DNA from: Acidobacteriaceae bacterium
GTDB lineage: Bacteria; Acidobacteriota; Terriglobia; Terriglobales; Acidobacteriaceae
Direction of reading: 5' to 3'
Length of the DNA stretch: 42,958 nt
Assembly: GCA_030838385.1 (NCBI GenBank)
Contig: JAUTWX010000405.1
Span: 1-42,958 of the forward strand
Positions 1 to 23,874 of this stretch are shown here, in pieces (positions within the stretch are counted from its first letter, which is position 1; the number at the start of each line of letters is the position of its first letter). The notes under the pieces are model-generated. The model saw only the letters and a program-made list of their open reading frames with translations. It did no database searches and had not been told where the DNA came from. The position numbers and the translations under genes are program-made.

Positions 1-186
1 TCACCGGCTGGGCTGAAGATGAAACGGCTCTTGGCCGCCGCTGGAAAGCCCGATAAACCCGGCTTGTACATATCGCGTGCATGTGAATATTGGTGGCAGA
101 CGGTGCCATATTTGACACACGATCAGAAACGGCATGAAGACTTAGATTCAACGCAGCCGGGTCACCGTGCCGACGCTTCCCGTTAG
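1..186 (+). pseudogene. C-terminal fragment of a phage terminase large subunit (partial at window start)
   Basis: Frame 1 reads SPAGLKMKRLLAAAGKPDKPGLYISRACEYWWQTVPYLTHDQKRHEDLDSTQPGHRADASR*, resembling terminase tails (GLYIS..C.YWWQTVP.L..D..R.EDLDS..PDHGADACRYG). TAG at 184-186 sits where the conserved Y of 'CRYGLL' would be, and GLLAHTLG follows in the same frame. Confidence 0.6.
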
Positions 187-247
187 GGTCTATTGGCGCA
201 CACTTTGGGGCTATGCTTACTGATGTCGTGTGGCCAATGCGGTGATC

Positions 248-1147
248 CTACGACCGCAACGGCAGTACATCGAAGAGGAACGTCTCAACATGATCGTATG
301 TGTTATAAGCGTGATAGTTCCGCGGGAATCTGATGTAGAAACGCACAGCGCGGAGCATTCCGATGTGAGCGCTAGTCAATTCGAAAGTAAATGCATTGAT
401 AGTTGACCAAATTTGTTCCGGTCCGTCTTCCATTTTGAATTGATATTCCAGCGGTAGACCTTCGGGGTCGCTACCGTGAACAACGACCTCTACACGATCA
501 CCGGGTCGCACCTCGACACGATCGCTTACGATACCTCGAAATGGATAGGTATGTCCGTGATTATCGTAGGCGCTGTCAATTCGTGGAAAGCAATCTTTTG
601 CCGTCTCCTTCTTGGATCGATAGCGCGCCACTTTCGCGCGAATCTCACCACAAATGCCGAGCGCAAGATGTTCTTGATAAGGAAGAAGACCGCGAGCATG
701 TGCGTTTGGATTGCGGAAGTCTTCGAGGTTCGATAAGAATACTTCGAATTCCTTTCGCTCGCCGAACACCGCTGAGAAGTGACCCCAATTCTTCACGATG
801 ATCGTCTTCAGATCGTAGAAATCGGCGAAATAAAGCAACCGTGTCTCAAGATTGCCGGTTGCCAGTTTCTTCTTTTCCTCTTCCCTCTTTCGTACCCATC
901 CGTCGTAGCGATCTTGGCTTACTCCCGTTTTCACGAGCCACTCTCCGCCCAGTTTGTCACTGAGGATCGACGCGATCAGATTTCTCAATACATTCTCTGT
1001 AGCCTGCAGCTGATCACCGACATTTTCACTTTCGTTCATCGTTAGCTCCGACGTGATTATAAAACGTTTATCGAAGACGGATGCGTCGCTGGCCAATTGC
1101 CTCGGAGGTACCGAACCACGAAGAATCGTATCGGGCTCAATTGGCAT
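248..1147 (-). CDS. Swt1-like HEPN-domain protein (alternative start near 1039)
   Basis: 299-aa ORF; contains FRNPNAHAR = R-x4-H HEPN signature after a helical N-terminal region; C-terminal Ig/beta-type segment (VSDRVEVRPGDRVEVVVHGSDPEG). Confidence 0.6.
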   Translation of the reverse strand: MPIEPDTILRGSVPPRQLASDASVFDKRFIITSELTMNESENVGDQLQATENVLRNLIASILSDKLGGEWLVKTGVSQDRYDGWVRKREEEKKKLATGNLETRLLYFADFYDLKTIIVKNWGHFSAVFGERKEFEVFLSNLEDFRNPNAHARGLLPYQEHLALGICGEIRAKVARYRSKKETAKDCFPRIDSAYDNHGHTYPFRGIVSDRVEVRPGDRVEVVVHGSDPEGLPLEYQFKMEDGPEQIWSTINAFTFELTSAHIGMLRAVRFYIRFPRNYHAYNTYDHVETFLFDVLPLRS

Positions 1148-1304
1148 GCACCAAGTGAAAGCCAGCTTGCCGCGCAGACAGGGTGAGGGGATTTTGGCCT
1201 AGCGGGGATGTTGGTGGGGTCTCTCCCTTATGCAGCCACAAGAGCGCGTACAGATCCATTCAAACACTGATCAGTTCACTGGCGCTCTCAGACTACACTT
1301 GCTT

Positions 1305-2004
1305 TATGTTCCATGCCTCGTATCTGCTCGACCCCTGGCTACGCGAAGCATTTACATGGTTGAGAGATGAAAAGTCGCTCGCTGCTGCGACCTGGGGACT
1401 CGTTATTGCAACTTTCCTGCTGTACCTGGATAGCCGAACACGAGGCAAGACACAGGATAAACAATGGGAGAAAGAGCGAGAACTCCGGATAAAGGAACAG
1501 GACGAACGATGGGCGCGAGAAGACCAACTCCGAATGCTCGATGCAAAGCCTAAAGCGGTAGTGGAAATTGCTGAAAAGCGGAATGCATCGGAGGTCATCT
1601 TTCAGTGCTTTAACCTCGGTAGTACCGCATTCTTCATCGACAGACTGATTGTGACTCTCAGTGCCAACACCAGCAGTGGGCCTCGTGTATTGATCTTCAC
1701 TTATCTCTTCTATGCCGCTTTCTGCTTCGCCCAACGCTTGCGCTGTGCCTCTGCGATCCTCTTCCTTCCAGCGGCGGACATTGTTCTCTTCTTTGGAGCG
1801 GCAGGGGAGTCGGAGGTACGTGGCCGTCCTCTACGTTTGGTGGAGGATGCACCAGCAAGGAAAGAACGAGCGGACTGCAAGCGTGCAATCTGGGCATCAA
1901 TGGCTGAAAGAATGTCCTGTGTATTCATCCACGTAAGGTATCAGAGGTCAGGTTCCAGCGCGAGTTACGGATTCGGAAGAGCAGGAAGATCAGGGCCCTT
2001 TTAA
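1305..2004 (+). pseudogene. Hypothetical membrane-anchored protein, probably 3'-truncated near 1710
   Basis: ATG at 1305: MFHASYLLDPWLREAFTWLRDEKSLAAATWGLVIATFLLYLDSRTRGKTQDKQWEKERELRIKEQDERW...; the 3' part of the frame is merely antisense to the 1710..1928 gene. Confidence 0.45.
1710..1928 (-). CDS. Small basic 'RKRWAKQK' family protein with AT-hook-like KRRGRPR
   Basis: MNTQDILSAIDAQIARLQSARSFLAGASSTKRRGRPRTSDSPAAPKKRTMSAAGRKRIAEAQRKRWAKQKAA; paralogs at 7021..7359 and 35600..35833. Confidence 0.8.
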   Translation of the reverse strand: MNTQDILSAIDAQIARLQSARSFLAGASSTKRRGRPRTSDSPAAPKKRTMSAAGRKRIAEAQRKRWAKQKAA

Positions 2005-2047
2005 TAGGCGTAGAACGCTTGTCACAGTCTGTAAGCTATAATTAACT

Positions 2048-2308
2048 ATGCCTGAAACTAAAAGTGTGAAGTTACTAAGTTGGACAGATGGCGATGATGG
2101 AAGGCACTTCGGTTGGACGACCGTCACGGTGGTAGAAGCGCTAAGGAGTAGTGAGAAGTATTTTCGCTGCGCTGCGTGCGATGAACCGGTCAAACTTATT
2201 CGGAAGAAAAGTGAAGATTCAGGTGGCTATCCGGAGCATTTGAAGATTGGTCTCAAGTGTGGAACGCCCCTAGTACGTCGCAAGGCTTCAATTAAGAAAA
2301 GGGCTTAA
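2048..2308 (+). CDS. Small zinc-finger-like hypothetical protein
   Basis: 86 aa with YFRCAACDEPVKLI...GYPEHLKIGLKC (CxxC...H...C arrangement). Confidence 0.55.
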   Translation: MPETKSVKLLSWTDGDDGRHFGWTTVTVVEALRSSEKYFRCAACDEPVKLIRKKSEDSGGYPEHLKIGLKCGTPLVRRKASIKKRA

Positions 2309-2806
2309 AGGTCCTGCCTCCTCAACACTCGCGTTCATCGTGGTATGACTTTTCCGGGAACGCATGGTTAACGCTTCTGTACAGGATGAGGGGAATTGAG
2401 CCTAGAGCGTAATTTCCACGGGCCGGGACATTAGGTATCTGAGAAACTGCTCTCACCTTCGGGAGGCGAAATCCGCTAACCGATTGAATCTTCGCAGCCC
2501 CACGCTACATAGGAGGGCTCGCCTGAGAGAAGGCCGCTTGTCAGGGCAAAAATTTGGCCACCCAAACTAGAGGGGTGACCGAGCTTCGTAATGTGTCCTG
2601 TCGTTATTGATAAGGTAACCGTCATTTACTACAAAATAAATCACATTAAGATGTGACGCCAGGTTGTCAAAGAGAGATTGTCAACTCCCGCCAAATCAAC
2701 CACCCCCGACGATTTCCTCAATGCTTATGTCGCCTACATGACATAAGCGTATAGTCGTAACCGTGTGGGTCCACTTTCGTCGCGTTGGCGGCGCTTAGGG
2801 GGTTCT

Positions 2807-3637
2807 ATGGCGAGTACGAAACTTCTGCTTGTGGACGACGATGAAGCTCTGCGTTATATGTTGGCTACCGTGCTGGAGGAACATGGCTACGATGTAACAA
2901 CCGCAGCCAGCGTTCCTGAAGCGCTCAAACTGATCACTGCGGGAAGCTACGACGTACTGCTCAGCGATCTCCATATGCCGGGAAGAGGGGATGGTCTCAC
3001 GGTCGTAAGCGCAATGCGCCACGCGAATCCTAAAGCCGTCACCATCTTATTGAGCGCCTTTCCGGAGATGGATGCAGCGGCTCATGCCATTCTGCTGCAG
3101 GCCGATCAGATTCTGGTAAAGCCGATGAATATTCCTGCCCTGATCGAAGCGATCGAGCAGAGGCTTGCAACTGGACCGCCTCCCTCTCGCGTGATCGAGA
3201 GCGTGGCTACGATTCTCGAATACTCGATAGAGAGCACAATCGACGCATGGTATGAGCGTGTCAAGAGGGACAAAAAGCTGACCGCTGTTTCTATGAGTCG
3301 CGAGCAGCGTGTAGGTCATATTCCCAAGATTCTCATCGACCTGGTGCATCGTCTCCGCTCTTTCAAATCTTTAGGCAGTAGCGAACTGGTATCGGGTGCA
3401 GCAGAAGACCATGGGCGGTCTCGCCGCCAACAGGGCTATTCGGCTGCCATGCTGGTCGAAGAATCGCGGATGTTGCAGGTCAGCATCTTTGAAACTTTGC
3501 AGAAGAGTCTGGCGAGCATCGATTTCAGCATTCTTTTGAATTCGGTCATGACAATCGCGGATGAAGTGGACGCACAACTCAGTCAGGCGATAGACAGCTA
3601 TACAGATGAATCTCTTCTCGAAGCTGCGCCTAATTAG
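2807..3637 (+). CDS. Response regulator: N-terminal receiver domain plus helical C-terminal domain (possible RsbRD-N-like)
   Basis: STKLLLVDDDEALRYMLATVLEEHGYDVTTAASVPEALKLITAGSYDVLLSDLHMPG...LVKPMN; C-terminal half helical, no recognisable HTH. Confidence 0.8.
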   Translation: MASTKLLLVDDDEALRYMLATVLEEHGYDVTTAASVPEALKLITAGSYDVLLSDLHMPGRGDGLTVVSAMRHANPKAVTILLSAFPEMDAAAHAILLQADQILVKPMNIPALIEAIEQRLATGPPPSRVIESVATILEYSIESTIDAWYERVKRDKKLTAVSMSREQRVGHIPKILIDLVHRLRSFKSLGSSELVSGAAEDHGRSRRQQGYSAAMLVEESRMLQVSIFETLQKSLASIDFSILLNSVMTIADEVDAQLSQAIDSYTDESLLEAAPN

Positions 3638-3708
3638 CGAGAGTGCTGCTTGAAAGTTATGCATCGCGGTACGGTTAAAGATTCGGCCCCGTTTTAGAAA
3701 AGCCATCC

Positions 3709-3843
3709 GTGCCAAAGCGCATTCTCGTAATTGCTGATGATCGCCCCTTGAGAACGACCCGAGTCTTCCTGCTAGCGCCGACAGCTAGTTCGCGCTCGGC
3801 CTATCCAGCACAAACTCGTCTCGAAGAAAGTCAGATCGCTTGA
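3709..3843 (+). pseudogene. Receiver-domain N-terminal stub (truncated response regulator)
   Basis: GTG-initiated frame: MPKRILVIADDRPLRTTRVFLLAPTASSRSAYPAQTRLEESQIA*; 'KRILVIADDRPLRTTRVFLL' matches receiver beta1/alpha1, then stops. Absent from the ORF track because it is short. Confidence 0.5.
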
Positions 3844-4000
3844 GAGTCACACTCACGTGTTCATCCAGCAGGACACCGACCGCATCGTCCATTGGGTCGC
3901 CGTTTCGGAACCAAGCCATGATGCGGCCTTTTTTCCATGCTTTGTTACGGATGGTGAAGCGGCTGCCACAGTCGAGAGAACGTACCTGGTCTGGTGTCAT
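3785..4000 (-). CDS. Hypothetical protein
   Basis: 71-aa ORF MTPDQVRSLDCGSRFTIRNKAWKKGRIMAWFRNGDPMDDAVGVLLDEHVSVTLKRSDFLRDEFVLDRPSAN; coherent composition. Confidence 0.4.
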   Translation of the reverse strand: MTPDQVRSLDCGSRFTIRNKAWKKGRIMAWFRNGDPMDDAVGVLLDEHVSVTLKRSDFLRDEFVLDRPSAN

Positions 4001-4040
4001 GGGCCCGTGATACGAAATCCTAATCCAGCAGATGATCTAC

Positions 4041-4235
4041 TCAAGACTGAGAAGACGACATGAAACGGTCCTCGCAGATGTGCTCGCGTTCCAACTCCGC
4101 GAGTTGCGATTCCATTACCCCGGACACGACGGTTCTAAAGCAAACGGGACAGATAGAGTCGAAGGTTCCGTCCTTGTTTTTTCTGTGCGGGAAGGCGGAA
4201 GGTTCATGATCGGGCAGGTTCATCATAGCCTGCAC
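4041..4235 (-). CDS. Small Cys/His-motif hypothetical protein
   Basis: HRKNKDGTFDSICPVCFRTVVSGVMESQLAELEREHICED; CPVC...HxC arrangement. Confidence 0.6.
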   Translation of the reverse strand: MQAMMNLPDHEPSAFPHRKNKDGTFDSICPVCFRTVVSGVMESQLAELEREHICEDRFMSSSQS

Positions 4236-4308
4236 CCTCTAGCAGCTAGCTAACGCCGCCTAGAGTCTTACACCTCAAAGAGCTTGGCAGGTCGCCAAAC
4301 CTGTCGAG

Positions 4309-4527
4309 TCACCTGACCACACTTCGAACGCAGTAGATACCGCGCCGCACGGCCTCACGCATGGCCTCGCGGACAATCGCATTGTGATCACGCATCGTCA
4401 TGCCAGCCGGATGGTCGGCACGGTAGCGCGCTTTGTTCTGGTACTCGGTCAGCTCCAGGTCCGATTTTCGCTGAGCGACCTCATCCACGATGCGCAACGC
4501 TTCCGTCCTTACCTGCTTCCAGGTCAT
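4309..4527 (-). CDS. Hypothetical protein
   Basis: 72-aa ORF, charged helical composition. Confidence 0.4.
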   Translation of the reverse strand: MTWKQVRTEALRIVDEVAQRKSDLELTEYQNKARYRADHPAGMTMRDHNAIVREAMREAVRRGIYCVRSVVR

Positions 4528-4666
4528 TTCCTCGCTTTAGTCTCCTCGATCACCATGCGAGCAATCGTAACGGGCTGCGAGATGATGGACCGCACCCGAG
4601 GACTCCTGTTCTGAATCTCTCGGGGGGATTCCACGCGAGCCAGTTTCACCGCCCACAATCAAGCCA

Positions 4667-4736
4667 GTGACGATGGTTGCAGGCGCGCGTCGCTAAGGTG
4701 CTATACGCAGGAGCGCGGTCGGCGAGCTATCATTCA
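4667..4736 (+). repeat. Diverged direct repeat, copy 1
   Basis: gtgacgatggttgcaggcgcgcgtcgctaaggtgctatacgcagg...ctatcatt; compare 5211..5280. Confidence 0.6.
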
Positions 4737-4764
4737 TCCCTGGGCCAGAGGGAACGGATTTCCA

Positions 4765-5202
4765 ATGAAGGGTACAACCGGTTACAAACGGACGGGCGAA
4801 CGGATAGCCTGCTTTATACTCGTCGCAGTCGTGGTTATCGGCGGCATAGCCAGCCAGCATCAGGTCGCATGCCACGCCAATGACGTGCCGACATGGAAGA
4901 TGCAAGTGCCGCAACTACTGTCCGACATCCAGCTCGGGAAAATGGGCCCTCACCGATTCCAAGATCTCTGCGGTCAGCCCTCCATGCGGGTGAATCACCA
5001 GGACTATTTCGGACTCTTCTATACGGACCGGAACGTTGTCGTGCTGTTCCGCCACCGCGCGCCGGGCACTGAAAGAGTCGAAGCAGCACGGCAGTACCCC
5101 TATGCCCCGTTCGATCAGGCGAGCTTCTGGGAGATCAGCCCGAGACACATGCTCGCACCCGAAGCGGCGCTCGAATCGCTCCGCTGCAACTGGGCTGAAT
5201 AG
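4765..5202 (+). CDS. Hypothetical protein with N-terminal signal/TM segment
   Basis: 145 aa, MKGTTGYKRTGERIACFILVAVVVIGGIAS then soluble region; purine-rich upstream sequence. Confidence 0.6.
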   Translation: MKGTTGYKRTGERIACFILVAVVVIGGIASQHQVACHANDVPTWKMQVPQLLSDIQLGKMGPHRFQDLCGQPSMRVNHQDYFGLFYTDRNVVVLFRHRAPGTERVEAARQYPYAPFDQASFWEISPRHMLAPEAALESLRCNWAE

Positions 5203-5210
5203 TCGCACGA

Positions 5211-5280
5211 GTGACCATGGTTGCAGGCGGGCCGCTGCGAAGGTGCCATACGCAGAGCACGATCCTCGCACTAGCATTGA
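5211..5280 (+). repeat. Diverged direct repeat, copy 2
   Basis: gtgaccatggttgcaggcgggccgctgcgaaggtgccatacgcag...ctagcatt; compare 4667..4736. Confidence 0.6.
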
Positions 5281-5360
5281 CCGACCTCTTCCAGATTAGG
5301 CCTGGTCCGTAAGAACAATTGAGTGATTTCCTGACGATTTGTCCGCAGCTATGTCCTCCA

Positions 5361-5568
5361 TCACCCTCTCCCCAGAAGCGCCCGCATAACTTCCCAACTC
5401 GGCTGACCAAGGAACTCCTCCGTAGAGACGATGTAGGACCGCCGCTCCAAGCAGACAAGGGCATCGGACAGCAACCGAGCCAATCACGACCTCACCTGAG
5501 ATCGGAACGCATCGCTTGCATCCTTTGCACCGCACCACTTGGACATGATTCCGTTCGGGAGCTGGCAT
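5361..5568 (-). pseudogene. Frameshifted Cys-motif hypothetical protein
   Basis: First frame MPAPERNHVQVVRCKGCKRCVPISGEVVIGSVAVRCP; near 5460 another minus frame continues the expected protein LVCLERRSYIVSTEEFLGQPSWEVMRALLGRG*. Confidence 0.5.
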
Positions 5569-5641
5569 AGCGGCAGGGTATCGCGGTTACTGTGAACCTT
5601 TGAGGTGTGAAGAAGCGGTCTGAACTAGCATTTCCCAGGAT

Positions 5642-5770
5642 TTATGGAAAGCAAATTGGCAACTCCCTTACTTCATAGCCGCGTCTGGCAAATATCGCGC
5701 CTAACGTTGCGCAAATGGTTTTTTCGTCGTCAACGATGAGAACTTTGTACTTCGCGCCAAGGCCCGGCAT
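5642..5770 (-). pseudogene. Receiver-domain N-terminal stub (truncated response regulator)
   Basis: MPGLGAKYKVLIVDDEKTICATLGAIFARRGYEVRELPICFP*; clear receiver start (VLIVDDE...ARRGYEV) ending after 42 aa. Not in the ORF track. Confidence 0.65.
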
Positions 5771-6103
5771 AATTGCTCCCGATACAAAAGCCTGCCCCGT
5801 CAGTAGCGTCAGAGACCAAGAGACGAATGGTCTGGACGCGTCCTGTGATCGTCTCTTCTAAAACGGGCGATTCATCGGGTCGTCTGTCTAGTCGTGTTGC
5901 CGCTTTCCTGTGGACAAGTGTGTCACATCATCCGAGTTTTGCACCAAGTACGATGCGCGAACCTGCTGAAAGGGTACGCCTGCGACACCGGATGAGGCGC
6001 AAGCCTCCGAGGCGAATTTCACCCGATGGAATGCGACCTTGCGGAGCGGTTTTCCGTCTCACCCGCCAGCGGGTCACTTGATAGAAGAACCTTGTGCGCC
6101 AGC

Positions 6104-6376
6104 CTAGCTTGCCGCTTGTGCTAGCAACTCTCTCAGCCCCGCAATCGCCTCGTGCAGCGTCCGGTATGCGGAACCGGCACCGACACGAACGATGGAAGTC
6201 CGCCCGCAGACGTACTCTGTACCGTCAGAGAGCGTGACCAATCGGCCCGTCACGCGGGAAATGTGGTTAGGGTCGAACGTGTCCTTGATGCAGAAGACGG
6301 AGACAGTTTCGAAAGGAGCGGCAACGAACGGAGCCGGAGCAAAGCGCTGACCAGTGATATCGCGGGGAATGAGCAT
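6104..6376 (-). CDS. Hypothetical protein
   Basis: ATG at 6376: MLIPRDITGQRFAPAPFVAAPFETVSVFCIKDTFDPNHISRVTGRLVTLSDGTEYVCGRTSIVRVGAGSAYRTLHEAIAGLRELLAQAAS. Confidence 0.5.
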   Translation of the reverse strand: MLIPRDITGQRFAPAPFVAAPFETVSVFCIKDTFDPNHISRVTGRLVTLSDGTEYVCGRTSIVRVGAGSAYRTLHEAIAGLRELLAQAAS

Positions 6377-6793
6377 GAAATTCCTCCCGCACTCGGATGG
6401 TTTCAACCTGCCACGTGTTGTATGCCGGGTGCGTCCCGCCTTCTGATGGTGTCCGCCTTCGCGTTGATCGTGAGGCGAAAACAGAAGGCACGTAACAATG
6501 CTCAAAACAGAATGAGGGGATCTGCGCCTAGTGGTTGTTCACGCTCGCAATGCTGCTCCCCATGCATAATGTAACCGGTAAAGCGGGTGGTTCCTCGGAG
6601 AGCGCTGTAACTAGCTCATTCTAAGGCGATAATAGCAAAGGATTGTAAAACAGTTGCGGCAGACGCCTGGGTTGGGAGCGCACAAGATCAACCCCACATT
6701 AGCCCCACAATATAGATGCCTTTCGATTCCCTTCACTGCCGTTAGAGTGCCAACCCCACGACTTAAATCCTTTAGATTGTTTAGTTAATGGCT

Positions 6794-6838
6794 CTCATAA
6801 CCCAAAGGTCGTAGGTTCAAATCCTACCCCCGCAACCA
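6794..6838 (+). other. 3' half of initiator tRNA-fMet(CAT): putative att site of an integrated element
   Basis: CTCATAA anticodon loop, CCCAA, T-arm GTAGG-TTCAAAT-CCTAC, acceptor 3' strand CCCCGCA, A, CCA. No matching 5' half (acceptor or D-arm) lies upstream. Confidence 0.85.
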
Positions 6839-6882
6839 TTTAGCGGATTTTGACCCTAAGCACCCAAGGGATCGGAGTCACG

Positions 6883-6916
6883 AGGCCATCGCTTGTTGAG
6901 CATGGCCTTTGCTTTT
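6883..6916 (+). terminator. Putative rho-independent terminator downstream of the tRNA 3' end
   Basis: aggccat-cgcttgttgagc-atggcct hairpin followed by ttgcttttt. Confidence 0.5.
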
Positions 6917-7020
6917 TGCCTGAAATTGACCAGGTCAATCAGCCATAATCGGTGGCAGCTCCAGACAGCCCTCTTGTTGAGCTCCCGCCTGCTTGCACCA
7001 ATAATCCAATAATTTACGAA

Positions 7021-7359: not shown

Positions 7360-7533
7360 CCATTCAATATTCACGCATAGTAAACATACCATTAGGCGAG
7401 CGATGAACTACCGATGAAATCCACAACACGCAGCCGGGGGAGTCTGGCATTCGCAAGCGGCGGCGAGCTTCTGAACGCCTCGCAAAACGGCGTAATATGG
7501 CGGTGCATTGATTTCGCAATTCGAGGACTTCTC

Positions 7534-8193
7534 ATGTCCGACGTAAAGCAGACGAATTTCTCGCGGCGCGGTTTTCTCAAGGGCGCTGGACTTACCGCAG
7601 CCGGAACTCTCCTGGAGCAAGCACAGTCCCTGACAGCAGAGGTCAAAAGTGCAGTGCACGAGCCTGCCACGCTTGGACCCGATGCGGTTGCTGTCCGGTT
7701 GCACGTCAACGGACATCTGCATGCCGCAACGGTCGAGCCACGAGACACGCTCGCCACCACTCTGCGCGACAAGCTGGGGCTCACCGGGACCAAGGTGGTG
7801 TGCGATCGCGGCTCTTGCTCCGCGTGCACAGTGTGGATCGACGAGACGCCGCAGCTTGCGTGCATGACTTTGACGCTCGATGTGGGCGGCAAGAAGGTCA
7901 CGACGATCGAAGGTCTGGCAGAAGGCGAAATACTTCACCCGGTGCAAGCGGCCTTCGTGAAGCACGATGCCATGCAGTGCGGATTCTGCACCCCGGGCAT
8001 GGTGATGGCATGCGCTTCTCTGCTGAAGCACAATCCGCACCCCACCCGGCCGGAAGTCGCGCACGCGATCAGTGGCAATCTGTGCCGGTGCGGCACGTAC
8101 CCGAGAATTTTTGATGCCATGGATGACCTTTCGAAAAACGGATCAACCAACAGCGCGGGACTGGTTATGCCGCGCGCGATGCAGGAGGTCTAG
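7534..8193 (+). CDS. Xanthine dehydrogenase/aldehyde oxidoreductase family (2Fe-2S) small subunit with Tat signal
   Basis: MSDVKQTNFSRRGFLKGAG Tat motif; CDRGSCSACTVWIDE and CGFCTPGM...GNLCRCGTYPRI cluster motifs. Confidence 0.92.
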   Translation: MSDVKQTNFSRRGFLKGAGLTAAGTLLEQAQSLTAEVKSAVHEPATLGPDAVAVRLHVNGHLHAATVEPRDTLATTLRDKLGLTGTKVVCDRGSCSACTVWIDETPQLACMTLTLDVGGKKVTTIEGLAEGEILHPVQAAFVKHDAMQCGFCTPGMVMACASLLKHNPHPTRPEVAHAISGNLCRCGTYPRIFDAMDDLSKNGSTNSAGLVMPRAMQEV

Positions 8194-10665
8194 ATGGCAG
8201 ACGACGCGATCTTGTTGGATGCGCAGGCGCAGCAGGAAAAGCAGCGCAAAGAGGGTGTGAAGGGCGAGGCCAAGCCTACGCGCGACGCCGAATCTGGCGA
8301 TACCAAAAAACCGCCGGCGAAGGAAGCGAGCCAGACGAGGACGGCTAGCGTCCTGTTCGGCATCCCGCAGCTTGGTCTGACGCACGTGGACCGGCAGGTT
8401 CCGGTAGACGAGCCGCCGCCGCTTGCTGAGAACTCCGCATTGAAATATGTCGGCCATCCGACGGTGCGGTATGACGGCGCGGCAAAGGCGAGCGGCCGCG
8501 GCAAATACACCGCCGACATTCATCTGCCAGGCATGCTTTATGCCTACATGCTTGGCGCAGAGATCCCTCACGGCCGCATTCTGTCGGTGGACACCTCCGC
8601 TGCCGAGCGCTATCCGGGCGTCAAGGCAGTGTATGTCATCGAGCACGACTACGGGGGTTCCGCCGCGCTGCGCGATCCCAAGCAGGAGATACCCTCGCGT
8701 TATCCCATCGTCCGCTATGCCGGCCAGCCCATCGCGGCGGTGGCGGCGACCTCACAAGCCATTGCGGAAGATGCCGCGAAGCTCGTTGAGGTGAAGTACG
8801 ATGCGAAGCCGTTCGTTGTGGACCGCGCGGATGCGCGGCAGCCGGATGCGCCGCTAGTCTTTCCCGGTCCAGCCGATGCTGAGGCCAGCGCGGGCGGCGG
8901 CGGCGGCCCCGCGGACGTGCCGCAAACAGGCAACGTGCATGGTCCTGAAAAGAAGACCAAGGGCGATTCCGAGGCTGGCTTCAAGGAAGCAGATGTCGTC
9001 GTGGAGAGCGAATACTTCACGCAGGTCCAGACGCATTCGGCGCTGGAAACGCATGGCGTAGTCGCCGACTGGAAGCCGGACGAGCTCACGGTCTACGCGT
9101 CGACGCAGGGCACCGCGAGCGTGCGCGATGAGTTCGCCGAGGTTTTTAAGCTGCCTAAGAGCAAGGTACGCGTCATCACCGAGTTCATGGGTGGCGGCTT
9201 TGGCGCGAAGTTCGGCGCGGGCAATGAGGGTGTCGTGGCGGCAAAGCTTTCGCGCAAGGCCGGCGCACCGGTGCGGCTGATGCTCGACCGCCGGCAGGAA
9301 CACATCGTCTCCAACCGTCCGGACTCTCACCAGAAGCTACGCATTGGCGCCAAGCGCGACGGCACGCTGACAGCGATTGAGTTGATCAGCTACGGCACCG
9401 CCGGAGTGGGTACGGGAGCGGGCACAGCCGGTCCGGCGACCAATCTCTACAAGTGCGCCAACATCCACACGGAAGAGAACGACGTCTTCATCAACGCCGG
9501 CCCCGGCGCAGCTTTTCGCGCGCCCGGTCATCCGCAGGGATGCTTCGCGCTGGAGCAGGCCATCGATGAACTTGCGGTCAAGCTCAACATGGATCCGCTG
9601 GAGTTGCGCGAAAAGATCGACGAGAGCCCCGCGCGCAAGGTCGAGCGGCAGATCATCCGGGAGAAGACGAACTGGCGCGACCGCAAGGCTGCCGGCGCCG
9701 ATACCGGACCGGTGAAGCGCGGCATGGGCATTGCGCAATCGGTGTGGTATCGCTTTGTCGATATGAACTCGTCCTGCGAGGTGCGCGTATCGAAGGACGG
9801 CTCGGTGGAGGTGCTCTCTGCCGTACAGGACATCGGCGGCGGCACCAAGACCATTCTTGCGCAGGTGGTCGCGGAGGAGTTCGGGATCCCACCACACAGT
9901 GTGCAGGTGCGCGTCGGAGACACTCGCTACCCCATCGGGCCGAACTCCGGCGGCAGTGTCACCGCGGGATCGATTACGCCCGCCATCCGCAATACTGCGT
10001 GGCAGGCAAAGCAGAAATTTTTGCAGGCTGTGGCGCCGGGTCTTGGCACAACAGCAGACAACCTCGACCTGCACGATGGAAATGTCGCGTGGAAGGATAG
10101 TTCCCGGTCCGTGTCGCTGCGCAGCGCCGCGGGGAAGATGCCGACCAGCGAAATTGCGGCGCGGACCACGCGCGTGCCGGACTACGAAAAGGCGCGGCTG
10201 CTGTACGGGGGCGTCGATTACGTGGAGCTTGCGGTCGATACCGAGACCGGCCGCGTGCACATCGAGCGCGTCTTCGGTGCGCACGATTGCGGCCGGCCGA
10301 TCAATCCAACCGGCGTCATCAGTCAGATCCACGGCGGCATTCTGCAGGGCATCTCCTACGCACTGTTTGAGCAGCGCGTGATGGACCGGCAGAAAGGATA
10401 CATTCTGAACACGAATCTGGAGAGCTACAAGATCATCGGAGCACGCGAAGTACCGAAGATTCAGATCGAGCTGATTGAGAACTACATTGGCCAGAGCTCG
10501 ACCGATGCGGCCGGCATTGGTGAATCGGCCGGCATCATTACGCTGGCCGCTGCCATCGGCAATGCGTTCTACAACGCAACAGGCGTGCGCATGCGCTCCA
10601 TTCCAATGACCCCGGCGCACGTGCTGGCGGCGCTGGGCAAGACCTCAGGAGAGATGACCGTATGA
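8194..10665 (+). CDS. Xanthine dehydrogenase family molybdopterin-binding subunit
   Basis: VGHPTVRYDGAAKASGRGKYTADIHLPGMLYAYM; GGGFGAKFG; GPGAAFRAPGHPQG; GIGESAGI near C-terminus. Confidence 0.93.
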   Translation: MADDAILLDAQAQQEKQRKEGVKGEAKPTRDAESGDTKKPPAKEASQTRTASVLFGIPQLGLTHVDRQVPVDEPPPLAENSALKYVGHPTVRYDGAAKASGRGKYTADIHLPGMLYAYMLGAEIPHGRILSVDTSAAERYPGVKAVYVIEHDYGGSAALRDPKQEIPSRYPIVRYAGQPIAAVAATSQAIAEDAAKLVEVKYDAKPFVVDRADARQPDAPLVFPGPADAEASAGGGGGPADVPQTGNVHGPEKKTKGDSEAGFKEADVVVESEYFTQVQTHSALETHGVVADWKPDELTVYASTQGTASVRDEFAEVFKLPKSKVRVITEFMGGGFGAKFGAGNEGVVAAKLSRKAGAPVRLMLDRRQEHIVSNRPDSHQKLRIGAKRDGTLTAIELISYGTAGVGTGAGTAGPATNLYKCANIHTEENDVFINAGPGAAFRAPGHPQGCFALEQAIDELAVKLNMDPLELREKIDESPARKVERQIIREKTNWRDRKAAGADTGPVKRGMGIAQSVWYRFVDMNSSCEVRVSKDGSVEVLSAVQDIGGGTKTILAQVVAEEFGIPPHSVQVRVGDTRYPIGPNSGGSVTAGSITPAIRNTAWQAKQKFLQAVAPGLGTTADNLDLHDGNVAWKDSSRSVSLRSAAGKMPTSEIAARTTRVPDYEKARLLYGGVDYVELAVDTETGRVHIERVFGAHDCGRPINPTGVISQIHGGILQGISYALFEQRVMDRQKGYILNTNLESYKIIGAREVPKIQIELIENYIGQSSTDAAGIGESAGIITLAAAIGNAFYNATGVRMRSIPMTPAHVLAALGKTSGEMTV

Positions 10666-11663
10666 ACCGCTTTACTTTCGTCGATTGCGCAACTGTAGAT
10701 GAGGCGCTCTCCCAGATGAAGGGCGACGCCGTGGTGAAGGCCGGCGGCATCGACCTGCTCGACCTGATGAAGGACGGCATCGTCTCTCCGCCGAGGCTTG
10801 TCAGCATCCGGAACGTGCAGTCACTGCACCGCATCGAGTCGTCTGACCGCGGTCTGCACCTTGGCCCGCTGACGACGCTGAGCGAGATCGCCGATCATCC
10901 GGAGATACGGCGGCGCTACGCGGCATTGTCGGATGCGGCAGGTCATGCAGCCACGCCGCAGGTGCGCAACATGGCGACGCTTGGCGGCAACCTGATGCAG
11001 CGGCCACGGTGCTGGTATTTCCGCTCCACCGATTTCGACTGCCGCAAGAAGGGCACCTCGGATGAGTGTCACGCGCTGCAGGGGGAGAATCAGTATCACG
11101 CGATCGTAAATAACAAAACCTGCGCGATGGTGCATCCTTCCTCCACCGCGGTTCCGCTGCTGGCCATGGGTGCGGAAGTTGAGCTGACCTCGAAAGCAGG
11201 CAAGCGCACGGTGGCAATGCGCGACTTTTACATTGCGCCGGAAGAGGACCTGCAGCGGGAAACAGCGGTGAAGCCGGGCGAGCTGATCACCGCTATACGC
11301 GTTCCCGTCCCTGCTGCCGGAACCCGCTCGGCGTATCAAAAGTATGGCGAGAAGGAGAGCTTCGACTGGCCTCTGGCTGATGCAGGCGTTGTTTTGGAGA
11401 TGGATGGAAAGAGCTGCCGCAATGCAGCCATCGTGCTTGGCGTGGCAGCTCCAACGCCGATCCACGCGACGCAGGCTGAAGCCGCCTTGCGCGGCAAGGT
11501 GATCGATGAGCGCACCGCGCGCGAAGCGGGAAAGCTGGCGGTAGCCAACGCGACGCCACTCTCACAGAATGGCTACAAAGTGCAGCTTTTCCAGACCGCG
11601 GTGTACCGCACGATCCTGCTGGCTGCCGGCCAGATGGACCGCGACCCCAGCGCTATTGGATAG
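10662..11663 (+). CDS. Xanthine dehydrogenase family FAD-binding subunit
   Basis: KAGGIDLLDLMKDGI; PQVRNMATLGGNLMQRPRCWYFR...; overlaps the preceding stop. Confidence 0.93.
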   Translation: MNRFTFVDCATVDEALSQMKGDAVVKAGGIDLLDLMKDGIVSPPRLVSIRNVQSLHRIESSDRGLHLGPLTTLSEIADHPEIRRRYAALSDAAGHAATPQVRNMATLGGNLMQRPRCWYFRSTDFDCRKKGTSDECHALQGENQYHAIVNNKTCAMVHPSSTAVPLLAMGAEVELTSKAGKRTVAMRDFYIAPEEDLQRETAVKPGELITAIRVPVPAAGTRSAYQKYGEKESFDWPLADAGVVLEMDGKSCRNAAIVLGVAAPTPIHATQAEAALRGKVIDERTAREAGKLAVANATPLSQNGYKVQLFQTAVYRTILLAAGQMDRDPSAIG

Positions 11664-11911: not shown

Positions 11912-14170
11912 CTAGAGCCGGAATTGTGCCGCCAGGGACGCCTCCGATGAGCCGCCCGCCCACACGGTGAACTGGCCCGGCTCGACCACCCACTTCCCTT
12001 CTGTGTTCCAGACAGCGAGCTGGGTCTGTGGGATTCTAAAGGTAACCGTCTTTGTTTCCTGCGGCTGCAGGTGGATGCGCGAGAAGCCGGCCAGAGAGCG
12101 GCTGGGCGTCTCGACACTGGTGACGTTCTCACGGAAATAGAGCTGAGCCACCTCGTCTCCTTCGCGATCTCCTGTATTTGTCACATCCACGGATACCTTA
12201 ACGGCGGCGCTACTGCCGGCCACCGCTGGCTGCACGATGAGATGGTCATAGTGGAACGTCGTGTAACTGAGACCGAAGCCAAAGGGAAAGAGCGGCTTGC
12301 CGTCGTCGTCGACATATTTGTGAATGCGTGATGGGTCGCTATTGTAGAAATCCGGAAGCTGACCAACGCTGCGCGGGAAGGTGATGGTGAGGCGGCCGGC
12401 TGGATTGTTGTCTCCAAAGAGCGTTTCAGCGATGGCCTGGCCGCCAAACTCGCCCGGATACCATGCTTCGAGAATGGCGGGAACGTGCTGCTTGGCCCAG
12501 CCAATGGTGAGCGGCCTGCCGTTTTCAAGCACGAGGATTATGGGCTTGCCGGTGGCGGCGATGGCCTCCAGAAGCTGCTCCTGATTGCCGGGCAGATCGA
12601 GATTCGAGCGATCGAAGCCCTCGCCCGAAATGCCCTGCCATTCGCCTAGGCCGAGGATGACCATGTCTGCCTGCTTTGCGGCTGCGACAGCCGCGGGGAT
12701 CTCCTTGCCTGGATCAATGGTGACGGTTGCCTGGGGCACGATGGCGCGAATGCCATCGAGCAGGCTGATGCGTTTGCCATTCGATTCGCGCTCATAGTCG
12801 CCATAACGCGCCACATCTGCATTGGGTCCAATCACCGCGATGTGGCGAAGCGATTTCGAAAGAGGCAGAAGATGCCCATCGTTCTTGAGCAGCGTCATAG
12901 ACTGGCGCGCTGACTCGAGGGACAAGGCGAGATGCTGCTGCGAGCGGTGTGCGCGCGCGTTGAGCGTGGGATTGACGAAGGGATGGTCGAAGAGGCCGAG
13001 TGCAAATTTGACGCGAAGGACGGAACGTACGGCTCGGTCGAGATCCGATTGCGGCAGTGAGCCTTCGCGCACGCAATCGACGAGCGCCTTCTGAAAGACG
13101 TCGTGAGGAAAATCGTAGAACTGCATGTCAACGCCGGAGCGGATGGCGAGGCAGGAGGCGTCCTTCGGCGACGCGGCTACATGATGCACGGTATAAAGCC
13201 GCTCGATGGCGCCGAGGTCGGAGAGAACGAAACCCCGGAAGCCCCATTCCTGGCGGAGGATGGTCTTGAGCAGGAGCGGGTCCGCGGTGATGGGAATGCC
13301 ATCAATTTCGTGATACGCAGCCATGGTGGCCATGGCATGACCTTCGCGAAATGCCGGCTCGAAGGACTTCAGCATGACCGTGCGCAGCTCGCGCTCGCCG
13401 ATGTGCACGGGTGAGGTGTTGGTGCCGCCTTCGGGCGAGCCATGGCCGGCAAAGTGCTTGGGTTCGCTGACCACGGTGTGGTCGGTATCGAGACTGTCCC
13501 CTTGCGCGCCGCGCACGTATGCAAGGCCGAGCTGCCCAGTGAGATAGGGGTCTTCCCCGAAGTCCTCTTCGACGCGCCCCCAGCGCGGCTCGCGCGCTAC
13601 ATCGAGCACGGGCCCGAGGATCATGTCGACGCCGGTGGCGCGCGCCTCCGCAGCGATGGCGGCACCTGTCTGCTCGGCAATCTGCGGACTCCACGTCGCG
13701 GCGAGATTGATAGGCGCAGGAAAAACTGTTCCGGTATCAAACCCGTGCAGACCCTCCTCGATAAACAGCGCAGGAATGCCGAGCCGATTGTGTGCGATAA
13801 CCCAGCGCTGAATGGTGTTGACCTGCTCCGGTGTGGGGTTGAGATCGTGGATGCTGCCCACGCCGAGGTCGCCCCAAAGGCTCTGCGCCTTCTCCGGCAA
13901 GAAGACCGCTTCGATTGCCGCGTGTGTGTCGTCCATGTGCTTGTCGACGATATAGCGGGCGGCGGAGTACATATCCAACTGGCGCGCCTTTTCTTCCACA
14001 GTCATGCGCTGCAGCAGGTCCGTAATGCGGGCCTCTATAGGGGCATTCGCTTGCGTGTAGATCAGCGACTCTTGCGCTGACTGTGCGCCAGCACCAGCGG
14101 TATGCGTCGGCAGGAGGCACGCCAGACAGAAGAAGGCGCAGCGCGAGAGAGACGAGTATATCGGGCCCAT
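11912..14170 (-). CDS. Glycoside hydrolase family 3 beta-glucosidase
   Basis: MTVEEKARQLD; KHFAGHGSPEGGTN; GFVLSDLGAIERL; fibronectin-III-like C-terminus. Start chosen at 14170 after the 14181 stop of the upstream gene. Confidence 0.93.
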   Translation of the reverse strand: MGPIYSSLSRCAFFCLACLLPTHTAGAGAQSAQESLIYTQANAPIEARITDLLQRMTVEEKARQLDMYSAARYIVDKHMDDTHAAIEAVFLPEKAQSLWGDLGVGSIHDLNPTPEQVNTIQRWVIAHNRLGIPALFIEEGLHGFDTGTVFPAPINLAATWSPQIAEQTGAAIAAEARATGVDMILGPVLDVAREPRWGRVEEDFGEDPYLTGQLGLAYVRGAQGDSLDTDHTVVSEPKHFAGHGSPEGGTNTSPVHIGERELRTVMLKSFEPAFREGHAMATMAAYHEIDGIPITADPLLLKTILRQEWGFRGFVLSDLGAIERLYTVHHVAASPKDASCLAIRSGVDMQFYDFPHDVFQKALVDCVREGSLPQSDLDRAVRSVLRVKFALGLFDHPFVNPTLNARAHRSQQHLALSLESARQSMTLLKNDGHLLPLSKSLRHIAVIGPNADVARYGDYERESNGKRISLLDGIRAIVPQATVTIDPGKEIPAAVAAAKQADMVILGLGEWQGISGEGFDRSNLDLPGNQEQLLEAIAATGKPIILVLENGRPLTIGWAKQHVPAILEAWYPGEFGGQAIAETLFGDNNPAGRLTITFPRSVGQLPDFYNSDPSRIHKYVDDDGKPLFPFGFGLSYTTFHYDHLIVQPAVAGSSAAVKVSVDVTNTGDREGDEVAQLYFRENVTSVETPSRSLAGFSRIHLQPQETKTVTFRIPQTQLAVWNTEGKWVVEPGQFTVWAGGSSEASLAAQFRL

Positions 14171-14180
14171 CACGGCATTC

Positions 14181-15638
14181 TTACAGAATGAGTGTGGTGA
14201 TGGTGTTGGCCGGCAGTTGAAGTTCGAGCGTCTTGTCCTGAAGGACGCACTGGACATGCCGGTCGTGACTCTGCTCCTGGCTACGGTTGGTGAGGACGAG
14301 CACACGCGAGCCGTCTGGATTCTGCACGGCTATGTGATCGATCTCTGGAAGATCGCCTGTTGTAGCGAAGACCTGGGCGCCGCGCTGCATGAACTTCGAA
14401 TAGTGGGCAAGGGCCCAGTACATCCCGCTGCGCGTGAGCTGGTGGGTCTGGGAGTGGAGCGTCAGGAGACCGCCGCAGGAGAAAGGTCCGATGTTGGGCT
14501 TGCCATGCTCGTCGAGCACCAGGTTCCAACTGACGATGCAACGGGCGCAGTTGGTCAGGATGCCGGCGAAGGTGCTGGACCACTTCGCCCAGTCGGTGGT
14601 GTAGTCAGGCGCGGTGACGTCCGATCCGCCCTCCGTCCAATACGCATTCTTCAGCGGAAACATATTGTGGACGCGCGTCATCGCCGCGGGCGATCCGTAA
14701 TAGCCATGCCAGGCCACGCCGTCGACGTATTTCGAGAGGCCGGGGTCCTCGAACTCGTCTGCCACGCGGCCCCACAAGTTGTAATTGTGGTCGAGGATCC
14801 AGATCTTGGTGTCGAGTGAATTTTTCTGCAGCACCGGTCCGAGAAACTCCTTCACGAACTGGATCTCATACTCCTGTCCCCACATGCACTGCGGCATGCG
14901 CCCGCCCTGGTCGGTGTCGATTTCGTTCTGAATGGTGACGGCGCGAATGTGGACTCCGTCTGCGGCGTAGCCCTGAAGGAACTTGACGAAGTATTCCGCA
15001 TACGGCGCGAAGTAACGGCTGCGCATGGAGCCGCCGAGCAGTGAGTCGCCCGCCTTCATCCACGCCGGCGGGCTCCAGGGTGAGGAGAAGTAAAACACCT
15101 CCGGGTTGACCTGCTGGGTCTCGCGAAGCACCGGCAGGATGTATTGCCGGTCGTGCTCGATGCTGAAGTGGGTGAGATCGGGATCGGGCTGTGCGGTGTC
15201 GTCGTAGGTGTAGGGGTCGCGCGAGTAGTCGCTGGAGCCGATGGTGGTGCGCGCTATCGACATGCGCAGGCCATCGGCTCCGAAACATTCCTTGAGCAGT
15301 GCTCCGCGGGCGGGCGCCGGCATCTGCTGGAGCAGATAGCAGGAGGCATCCGTGAGGGCGGCTCCAAACCCCAGCAGTTCCTGACACGGTTGTTCGGGAT
15401 GGAGCTGGATGGCCCCAGAGCGGGCCCCAGAGCCGGCCGAAGCCCCGCTGCGCCATGTGGGCACATCGATTGGCTCACAACGCGCCTTGTCTGAGGTGCG
15501 CCAGGCCCTGACCGGTATGGTCGCCTTACCGGGATCGGTGTCCGACGTGATGCCCCAGGCCGCGAGGGAACCGAAAGACGTAGCAGGGGCAATCATGGCT
15601 GCCAATTTCAGGAAGGTACGCCGGCTGGTCATATCCAT
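14181..15638 (-). CDS. Glycoside hydrolase family 30 (glucosylceramidase-like / beta-1,6-glucanase-like)
   Basis: QELLGFGAALTDASCYLL; RTTIGSSDYSRDPYTYDD; SPWSPPAWMK; IQNEID; YWTEGG. Confidence 0.92.
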   Translation of the reverse strand: MDMTSRRTFLKLAAMIAPATSFGSLAAWGITSDTDPGKATIPVRAWRTSDKARCEPIDVPTWRSGASAGSGARSGAIQLHPEQPCQELLGFGAALTDASCYLLQQMPAPARGALLKECFGADGLRMSIARTTIGSSDYSRDPYTYDDTAQPDPDLTHFSIEHDRQYILPVLRETQQVNPEVFYFSSPWSPPAWMKAGDSLLGGSMRSRYFAPYAEYFVKFLQGYAADGVHIRAVTIQNEIDTDQGGRMPQCMWGQEYEIQFVKEFLGPVLQKNSLDTKIWILDHNYNLWGRVADEFEDPGLSKYVDGVAWHGYYGSPAAMTRVHNMFPLKNAYWTEGGSDVTAPDYTTDWAKWSSTFAGILTNCARCIVSWNLVLDEHGKPNIGPFSCGGLLTLHSQTHQLTRSGMYWALAHYSKFMQRGAQVFATTGDLPEIDHIAVQNPDGSRVLVLTNRSQEQSHDRHVQCVLQDKTLELQLPANTITTLIL

Positions 15639-15680
15639 GAACTTTATCGATCTCTCCGGGGGTAGCTAGTTACTTACGTG

Positions 15681-15698
15681 AAGACAAAGGATTGTCTT
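15681..15698. promoter_or_regulatory. Operator-like inverted repeat AAGACAA-N4-TTGTCTT
   Basis: Perfect 7+4+7 palindrome in the intergenic region upstream of GH30; second near-identical site at 15789. Confidence 0.6.
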
Positions 15699-15788
15699 AG
15701 CATACGCAGCAAAGATTTCGCTTGACAATCATCTTCTTGAATTGTTTTCATCTGCAACGATCACCGGGGACCCAACTTTCCTGACGCG

Positions 15789-15806
15789 AAGGCAAACCGT
15801 TGTCTT
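15789..15806. promoter_or_regulatory. Operator-like inverted repeat AAGGCAA-N4-TTGTCTT
   Basis: Same geometry as 15681..15698, one arm position differs. Confidence 0.55.
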
Positions 15807-16032
15807 GTCCTTGAGGCCGGGATCGCGGGGGTGGAATGTTTCGCCCTTTGTCAGGAAGATTCCCGGTGACCAACGGAACGGTTGAGACGATCTGCGGTCC
15901 TTCCTTTCCGTAACAGGGGAGTCGTGGGCCTCACTGCCGGATTTCCGGCGGCGGCCCGATGCAACAAAGAACAAGCGCGCATCCGCAGTAAGGGGTGTAG
16001 CGCAGGCAGATGGTACTTCTCCAGGAGGCAAC

Positions 16033-19000: not shown

Positions 19001-19335
19001 ATCAGATTGGGAATCCAAACCCCTCCCACCGCAGCATTCAGGAGTGGTTTGATCCAAGTGCCTTCGCTCAACCCACTCCCGGTACTTACGGGAACGCTCA
19101 ACGCAATAACCTATATGGGCCGAGTTATTTACTCGTAAATGCCGGCGTCGGCAAAACCTTCCATATACCGTGGGAAAACATCGGCCTAGAAATTCGCGCT
19201 TCAGCGAATAACGTCATCAACCATCCCAGCTTCGACGCTCCCGACTCCACGATCGGCGACCCGAACGTTGGTGTGATCAATAGCCTGACCGTAAAGGGCC
19301 GCACCATGCAGCTTTACGGACGTATCTCCTTCTAA
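16033..19335 (+). CDS. TonB-dependent receptor with N-terminal carboxypeptidase-regulatory-like domain
   Basis: Signal peptide then GDIRGVVTDSAGAVIPGASVKV...; plug PQVGADWQNFITLLPG; GGTNRFHGSAYEYFQNDALNA; 1100 aa. Confidence 0.93.
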   Translation: MKQWIRASLGLAMLWPALTAIAQNTNSGDIRGVVTDSAGAVIPGASVKVDDVDKGITHTYTTDGAGLYDTGSIVPDHYLITITAPGFQSYVRGPITLQVATVAIDASLTVGAAQQQVVVKTDVPLLQTETGAQTQTLESKQLLQMPQVGADWQNFITLLPGATSHIYNNRPGAQTSINGNLPFNTVLADGATTTLPMSQNSDVMVLETVAEVKIDDSAFSAQYGIGGATFNQISKGGTNRFHGSAYEYFQNDALNAADYAFGQGAVPFQRYNNFGFAVGGPILKDKVFFYFNYDKIINPGSSSSGFKNVPTAGMRNGDFTGFQTLYDPTTQTIDSAGVFHRRTFADEYGNGNKIPAGLIDPVAAAITQYYPASNVAGASGFSNNFFFNVPNSQPFTKFFGRLDWQINPNNHLIASETESDNPAQYHNEGICPINCQSGDVSRDNAQVSWVWTISPNTINEARMGFTDQLNFFVPESLNQGFPAKLGMQFAKADLFPDIQVEGNGGDMYRLQPNTNAVYKEFVFDPSDVVTLIRGRHVLHFGGEFLISRADSTTWGNQVAGHFNFNGAYTAAKAGDTSTGMAFADFLLGYANEWDAKQSPEWGGRLKSPQFFAQDDIKLRPNLTVNLGLRWQGMTGWHEVKGNILSFDPTVTNPADGSKGAMWYGTTKANGRDSLQAPSWNTWLPRVGFAYGHGPKTVVRGGIGLYGYTWSDDTYGPGIGGALQFNGQLNDTTTGTSPVALLGSNGNGVYQGSLSANSAFIRPVGPAALNGQGVSYQEYHSPVPKILEWNFEVQQQIGTDMVAKVAYVASHGYNLLFPADINAVPEAKLAPNDQNLRPYPLFQGINDGNGAGGTNNGVSNYNSLQTSINKRYSNGLSFFGNYTWSHMLTSIDSSGWGTGSGNDYYQRPYDVAANYGASNFDQRNSFKTAVTYDLPFGKGRQFLNSNWLADETIGGWQIAPSVIWSSGVPYSLITSADNSFDLKGNGKQYPNQIGNPNPSHRSIQEWFDPSAFAQPTPGTYGNAQRNNLYGPSYLLVNAGVGKTFHIPWENIGLEIRASANNVINHPSFDAPDSTIGDPNVGVINSLTVKGRTMQLYGRISF

Positions 19336-19352
19336 CCACTCACCCGCTTCAG

Positions 19353-19389
19353 AAAGAAGAGAACGGCAATCGCCGTTCTCTTCTTTTTT
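19353..19389 (+). terminator. Strong rho-independent terminator
   Basis: aaagaagagaacggc-aatc-gccgttctcttcttt: 15-bp stem with T tract, just after the TonB receptor stop. Confidence 0.9.
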
Positions 19390-19441
19390 CGTCTCGCCAT
19401 ATCCGCACTTAGCGATATCCGCACTTTATGATGAGTCAGTC

Positions 19442-22421: not shown

Positions 22422-22473
22422 GGAGTGTTGTGCGCGTTCGCGCGAGTGGTCAGGTGAGCGACTCCAGATAGTC

Positions 22474-22768
22474 CTAGCGAGAAGCGGCTGACCCCTTTTG
22501 ATCAAGCGCCTCCAACGCTACGTTGAGCTCGAGCACGTTGACCCGCGGCTCACCGAGAAGGCCAAGCTCTCGCTCGGTGGATGTGTTGCGACCAGCGCGC
22601 GCAATGCCGGGAACCGATCACTACACCGTTCTGCCGCACCAACTCCCCGGACGCCTGCGCGGGAAAGGCGAGATATGCAATGCCAGTGATCACGAGTGGA
22701 TAGACGATGCCAAGGAGTACTGCCGTGATTGCGGTGTAGAGGCATGCGGTGACGAGATGACGTTTCAT
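22474..22768 (-). pseudogene. kdpC: kdpC remnant: N-terminus joined to C-terminus by internal deletion
   Basis: MKRHLVTACLYTAITAVLLGIVYPLVITGIAYLAF...NGVVIGS, then in another frame TERELGLLGEPRVNVLELNVALEALDQKGSAASR*. Confidence 0.8.
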
Positions 22769-22781
22769 AGAGAGCGCTCCT

Positions 22782-23230: not shown

Positions 23231-23239
23231 GGTCGGGCG

Positions 23240-23562: not shown

Positions 23563-23564
23563 TC

Positions 23565-23756: not shown

Positions 23757-23789
23757 GGAAGCACGTTGATCGATCTCGTGAAGCAGCGG

Positions 23790-23835: not shown

Positions 23836-23874
23836 AAGACTGCCATCGCACCGCCGGTTCGTGTTCGGGCAGGC

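What the first reader, a model, noticed from the sequence alone, without database searches (positions are those of the whole stretch)
6794..6838. Initiator tRNA-fMet 3' half as an island attachment scar
The 45 bp run from the anticodon loop to an encoded CCA matches an fMet 3' half, including the 'CCCCGCA-A-CCA' end that fits the C1-A72 mismatch of initiators. No 5' half precedes it. In tRNA-targeted integration the displaced 3' fragment marks the distal end of the element, so on this orientation the element should lie to the left and an intact plus-strand tRNA-fMet should sit beyond position 1. Initiator tRNA appears to be a less usual target, which makes it worth following.
Basis: partly seen in the sequence, partly recalled or inferred. 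Interest (0 to 1): 0.75.

Follow-up and report, generated by a model that had tools for sequence, protein, structure and literature searches.

The report
Island scar in initiator tRNA gene
The 45 bases are the cut-off back half of the gene for the translation-starting tRNA, left behind when a mobile DNA island inserted there; the process is well known, but in this family of soil Acidobacteria the starter tRNA gene turns out to be hit again and again, often by islands in a row.

Summary
Observation confirmed. Window 6794-6838 is an exact initiator tRNA-fMet 3' half (anticodon loop to CCA) with no 5' half. The same 45 bp occurs in intact tRNA-fMet genes across Acidobacteriota. Interpretation supported, though not completed in this genome. 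Four things place it at the native fMet locus with the element on the left: (1) window 11915-36384 is collinear with the DNA 3' of fMet in a same-genus genome; (2) the DNA 5' of fMet there matches own contig C501, which stops about 1.2 kb short of the gene; (3) GC drops from about 62% to 50-57% left of the scar; (4) paired 11-bp repeats (6690-6711), matched at other fMet scars, lie 104 nt left of it. The intact fMet and integrase fall in an assembly gap left of base 1. In relatives a tyrosine integrase lies 80-200 bp beyond tRNA-fMet. About 49 of 201 family genomes carry extra lone 3' halves, with tandem arrays up to about 265 kb, so fMet is a recurrent target there. Identity starts sharply at the anticodon loop. 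In some genomes the functional gene and its displaced half differ in T-stem, so integration can change the initiator's T-stem. A new member of a known kind.

The parts
6794..6838 (+). Displaced 3' half of tRNA-fMet (anticodon loop to encoded CCA), the attR core
   Evidence: Exact match to the 3' half of intact tRNA-fMet genes in Acidobacteriota; no tRNA called
6794..6800 (+). Anticodon-loop heptamer CTCATAA, inferred strand-exchange region
   Evidence: Identity between 40 lone halves and 121 intact genes drops to background exactly at the base before it
6690..6711 (+). Pair of direct repeats AACCCCACATT / AGCCCCACAAT, inferred integrase arm-type site
   Evidence: 23/24 identical to the attR arm of G229 (L369, L243), 21/24 to L136. 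Period-10-12 repeats at this distance from the core in 17/36 lone halves vs 4/468 control windows
1..6793 (.). Right end of the inserted element (cargo); its left end, integrase and the restored fMet lie off the contig
   Evidence: GC 50-57% vs 59-64% for most of the right; absent from the fMet locus of same-genus G001; few homologues in 90 relatives
248..1147 (-). HEPN-domain protein, candidate defence gene carried by the element
   Evidence: PF18731 HEPN_Swt1 5.9e-5, below its curated cut-off; PADLOC PDC-M34B 2.8e-15
2765..3637 (+). Response regulator with RsbRD_N-like domain, element cargo with a paralogue on own contig C349
   Evidence: PF00072 5.7e-23; 81% DNA identity to G000:C349 and G001:C3:142879
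6882..6917 (+). GC hairpin followed by T run: likely native fMet terminator, displaced together with the 3' half
   Evidence: -17.6 kcal/mol, z -2.4; a comparable hairpin follows fMet in G001 (-22 kcal/mol)
7414..11663 (+). Aldehyde-oxidoreductase-type operon between the scar and the conserved fMet 3' neighbourhood; elsewhere (C1) in G001
   Evidence: Pfam Fer2_2, FAD_binding_5, CO_deh_flav_C; 7520-11904 matches G001:C1:387636-391939 at 79-84%
11915..36384 (.). Native chromosome: conserved neighbourhood 3' of tRNA-fMet
   Evidence: Collinear with G001:C3:420463-462399 at 77-82%

Best explanation
A tyrosine-recombinase-driven integrative element inserted into the tRNA-fMet gene by exchange in the anticodon loop. 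It brought its own copy of the 3' half, which rebuilds a working fMet at the left end, next to the integrase and now in an assembly gap. The chromosome's original 3' half, with its terminator, was pushed to the right end and is what we see at 6794-6838. Bases 1-6793 are the right end of that element. Shown: the fragment, its native right flank, the matching left contig, the arm repeats, and the same architecture with integrases in relatives. Inferred: the integrase, the restored tRNA and the mobility of this particular copy.
For: Exact fMet 3' half with no 5' half. Native fMet 3' synteny to the right and native 5' synteny on own contig C501, ending 1.2 kb before the gene. Low-GC left side absent from the G001 locus. 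Arm-type repeats 104 nt from the core, shared with other fMet scars. In G032: intact fMet + integrase, 98 kb, fragment + integrase, 30 kb, fragment without integrase. In G031: intact fMet + integrase, 42 kb, fragment without integrase. Such integrases are PF00589. Identity boundary exactly at the anticodon loop.
Against: The intact fMet and the integrase are not in the assembly. The window has no integrase remnant on either side. About 5 kb next to the scar (6839-11914) is not at this place in G001, so the locus has a more complex history than a single insertion. The MAG is 6.3% contaminated and in 551 contigs.
Confidence: 0.9

Rival explanations
1. The scar is an internal junction of a tandem array: the right side (6839 to about 11914) is also a remnant of an older element inserted at the same fMet, and the true chromosome starts near 11915.
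For: 6839-11914 is absent from G001's fMet 3' side, where about 6 kb of other genes sits, and its operon is on another contig there. Tandem arrays are common at fMet in relatives. The flank 6852-6865 (GACCCTAAGCACCC) loosely resembles attL arms.
Against: No integrase remnant (best E 0.14), no second fMet fragment to the right, no significant arm match. The terminator after the scar looks native, and GC is host-like.
Confidence: 0.2
2. Chance or degenerate duplicate of a tRNA piece (for example carried by an IS, or misassembled), unrelated to integration at this locus.
For: The MAG is fragmented and contaminated, and no intact fMet is found in it.
Against: The fragment sits at the native fMet locus by synteny, starts exactly at the anticodon loop like the other lone halves, and has arm repeats at the expected distance.
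Confidence: 0.04
3. A functional split, trans-spliced or otherwise expressed half-tRNA.
For: The 3' half keeps full T-arm complementarity and CCA.
Against: No 5' half in the window. Island-flanking halves next to intact fMet genes in relatives explain it. Split tRNAs are known from archaea, not from these bacteria (own knowledge).
Confidence: 0.01

Closest known systems
tRNA-targeted genomic islands as defined by Islander (PMC4383910), anticodon-centred (A) subsite
   Same: Displaced 3' tDNA fragment in the same orientation, island between the regenerated gene and the fragment, tyrosine integrase by the regenerated gene in relatives, tandem arrays, crossover in the anticodon loop
   Different: Target is initiator tRNA; integrase and regenerated gene not recovered in this genome; fMet repeatedly used within one bacterial family
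Phage integration in the 3' half of a tRNA gene with about 43-45 bp common core (e.g. Boilgate, Omega, described in PMC10865867)
   Same: attP spans the tRNA 3' half and rebuilds a functional tRNA at attL
   Different: tRNA-Lys/Leu in mycobacteria versus tRNA-fMet in Acidobacteriota; no phage structural genes seen in the 6.8 kb available
tRNA-dependent lysogeny (PMC10865867)
   Same: Tyrosine integrase acting at an essential tRNA gene
   Different: There the core is about 10 bp and the tRNA is not rebuilt; here the shared core is 45 bp and rebuilds it in relatives

Membership tests
tRNA-targeted integrative element / genomic island | Displaced fragment of a tRNA gene, correct (3') half and orientation | tested here: met
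tRNA-targeted integrative element / genomic island | Intact cognate tRNA gene upstream on the same replicon, sharing the block | tested here: inconclusive
   Absent from the MAG; present in relatives; synteny puts it in the gap between C501 and C395
tRNA-targeted integrative element / genomic island | Tyrosine integrase gene between tRNA and fragment | tested here: inconclusive
   Not in window or recovered in own contigs; present in relatives at the same site
tRNA-targeted integrative element / genomic island | Inserted DNA absent from the same site in a relative | tested here: met
   G001: intact fMet and 3' neighbourhood, none of 1-6793 there
tRNA-targeted integrative element / genomic island | Arm-type integrase sites beside the core | tested here: met
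   6690-6711 repeats, similar to G229 and L136 arms; by sequence only, binding not tested
tRNA-targeted integrative element / genomic island | Excision and circular form / mobility | not testable with these tools
   Needs reads or PCR across attP
tRNA-dependent lysogeny | Short (~10 bp) core that does not rebuild the tRNA, plus a phage-borne tRNA | tested here: not met
   45-bp core extending to CCA; no tRNA in window
Prophage | Virion or terminase genes | tested here: inconclusive
   None among the main ORFs of 1-6793 scanned with Pfam, but only the right end is available

The most novel reading that the evidence does not exclude
In this Acidobacteria family the initiator tRNA gene is a main docking site for islands, and because each island carries its own 3' half, the T-stem of the cell's usually single initiator tRNA is set by the most recently arrived element. 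Initiator tRNA diversity would then be partly written by mobile DNA. Direct signs: G073 has intact T-stem TAGG with two displaced halves CTGG; G032 has intact TAGG with an outer displaced half CAGG; also G258 and G170.
Probability: 0.4. Interest if true: 0.6.

Novelty: new member of a known kind. Interest (0 to 1): 0.38.

Why it matters
It gives a precise, searchable end-point for islands in Acidobacteriota, a soil group whose mobile elements are poorly mapped, and points to one hotspot where strain-variable genes, here including a HEPN-type candidate defence gene, can be collected. It also offers a natural system to ask whether swapping part of an essential initiator tRNA by mobile DNA has a cost.

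Tried and rejected
Intact fMet in own genome by block, 5'-half pattern and Rfam: none; the CAT tRNAs are elongator Met and Ile2. Own integrases as partner of this element: best match (C350, 31%) sits at tRNA-Glu, so rejected. Integrase remnant beside the scar in the window: none. Second fMet fragment to the right: none. Right flank as an attL arm: loose resemblance only. G229, whose arm best matches the window, has only a short integrase remnant by its fMet, so the integrase subtype for this arm stays open. mir-1677 hit in Rfam: chance, 23 bits against a cut-off of 84. One Pfam call failed on wrong coordinates. Paper searches for initiator-tRNA islands or Acidobacteria tRNA hotspots gave no direct description.

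Full report
OBSERVATION. Window 6794-6838 is CTCATAACCCAAAGGTCGTAGGTTCAAATCCTACCCCCGCAACCA. ARAGORN finds no tRNA in the window. In most of them the block is the 3' half of an intact tRNA-fMet (GCGGGGTGGAGCAG..GGTAGCTCGTTGGG|CTCATAACCC...); in roughly a quarter it is a lone 3' half after unrelated DNA. The C1xA72 remark does not carry the weight: position 1 in 121 intact genes of the sample is T in 75, A in 31 and C in 15.

WHERE IT SITS. The window is the whole of contig C395 of a 551-contig MAG, 85% complete and 6.3% contaminated. The MAG has no tRNA-fMet: two CAT tRNAs are present, elongator Met (C423) and Ile2 (C326), and a 5'-half pattern finds nothing. The same-genus genome G001 has an intact fMet at C3:414361-414436. 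Window 11915-36384 is collinear with G001:C3:420463-462399, the DNA that follows fMet there. The DNA before fMet in G001 matches own contig C501, whose end is about 1.2 kb short of the gene.

THE LEFT SIDE. Bases 1-6793 have GC 50-57% against 59-64% for most of the right, are not at G001's fMet locus and have few homologues in 90 relatives. Content: a HEPN protein (248-1147) matching a PADLOC candidate defence family, PDC-M34B, at 2.8e-15 (Pfam HEPN_Swt1 below cut-off), a response regulator with a paralogue on C349, and small ORFs without matches. Next to the scar, 104 nt before the core, is a pair of 11-bp repeats, AACCCCACATT AGCCCCACAAT (6690-6711). It is 23/24 identical to the arm at the same place in G229 and 21/24 in L136. 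In 36 non-redundant lone halves, period-10-12 repeats at 85-125 nt reach 8 of 9 matches in 17, versus 4 of 468 control windows from the same DNA. This is the expected look of integrase arm-type sites; binding is inferred.

THE RIGHT SIDE. The scar is followed by TTTAGC and then a GC hairpin with a T run (-17.6 kcal/mol), comparable to the hairpin after fMet in G001 (-22 kcal/mol). This is best read as the native terminator displaced with the 3' half. Between it and the conserved block at 11915 lies an aldehyde-oxidoreductase-type operon that G001 keeps on another contig (C1:387636-391939). The interval is thus variable in both genomes; an older decayed insertion is possible, but no integrase remnant or second fragment was found.

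RELATIVES SHOW THE WHOLE MECHANISM. In G032, on one contig and one strand: intact fMet with a tyrosine integrase about 80 bp beyond it, 98 kb, a fragment with another integrase, 30 kb, and a fragment with none. In G031: intact fMet with integrase, 42 kb, fragment without integrase. In G073: intact with integrase, 90 kb, fragment with integrase, 175 kb, fragment without integrase. The two integrases tested by Pfam are PF00589 and are encoded towards the tRNA. Among loci with at least 1.5 kb of downstream DNA, 28 of 61 intact genes and 16 of 26 lone halves have such an integrase directly beyond them (the locus set is partly redundant and only three query integrases were used). Counting by hand, 49 of 201 family genomes hold more 3' halves than intact genes, 37 of these with at least one intact gene; a few may be contig-edge artefacts. 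In IMG/VR, 73 contig stretches carry the block, 65 as a lone half.

CROSSOVER POINT. Across 40 lone halves, conservation drops to background at the base before CTCATAA, while 121 intact genes are nearly invariant there. Exchange therefore most likely occurs in the anticodon loop, Islander's 'A' subsite (PMC4383910).

ALLELE SWAP. The chromosome-end fragment is the original 3' half; the functional gene carries the element's. In G073 the functional gene has T-stem TAGG/CCTA while both displaced halves have CTGG/CCAG; in G032 the intact gene and inner fragment are TAGG and the outermost CAGG; G258 and G170 also differ. The base pairs are kept. This was seen, not tested for effect.

COMPARISON AND NOVELTY. 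The mechanism is the textbook one described by Islander (PMC4383910). It is not tRNA-dependent lysogeny (PMC10865867), because the 45-bp core rebuilds the tRNA in relatives. I found no paper describing initiator tRNA as an island hotspot in Acidobacteria, but the library is partial, and Islander does sort initiator tDNAs as a class. Verdict: new member of a known kind; the fMet hotspot and the T-stem swap are the parts worth following.

Noticed in passing
window 248-1147 (-): HEPN-domain protein matching PADLOC candidate defence family PDC-M34B (2.8e-15), carried in the island's right-end segment; possible abortive-infection-type gene.
   Followed up: partly
window 1178-1205, 2381-2408, 6507-6534 (+): Three copies of a 28-nt motif (ACAGGGTGAGGGGATTTTGGCCTAGCGG-like, 79% alike), all left of the scar; a stricter 17-nt form is found in none of the other loci fetched. 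Meaning unknown.
   Followed up: partly
window 7021-7392 (-) and 1720-1759: Small basic protein (...ERIAAAQRKRWAEQKK...) right of the scar, and an 85%-identical 40-nt remnant of it inside the island; further relatives in G001 C10 and C3, so it looks like a multi-copy family.
   Followed up: no
window 7520-11904: Aldehyde-oxidoreductase-type operon sits by the fMet scar here but on another contig (C1) in same-genus G001, with sharp junctions: a rearrangement or insertion of about 5 kb.
   Followed up: partly
L041, L044, L036, L045 (own contigs C350, C89, C102, C122): Four other tRNA-integrase neighbours in the same genome: tRNA-Glu, tRNA-Ala, tRNA-Leu and tRNA-Pro, suggesting several tRNA-targeted islands.
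   Followed up: no
L295-L367 (IMG/VR contigs): 65 viral contig stretches carry a lone fMet 3' half, 34 with T-stem CGGG; most lack the integrase type seen in Acidobacteriaceae, hinting at other fMet-targeting integrases in other hosts.
   Followed up: partly
L060, L087, L134, L154: A set of lone halves, mostly from Bryobacterales/Solibacter-type genomes, shares a different 5' flank (...GTGAATCAGTA..ACGTGGCGTAGGT), a separate element family at the same site.
   Followed up: no
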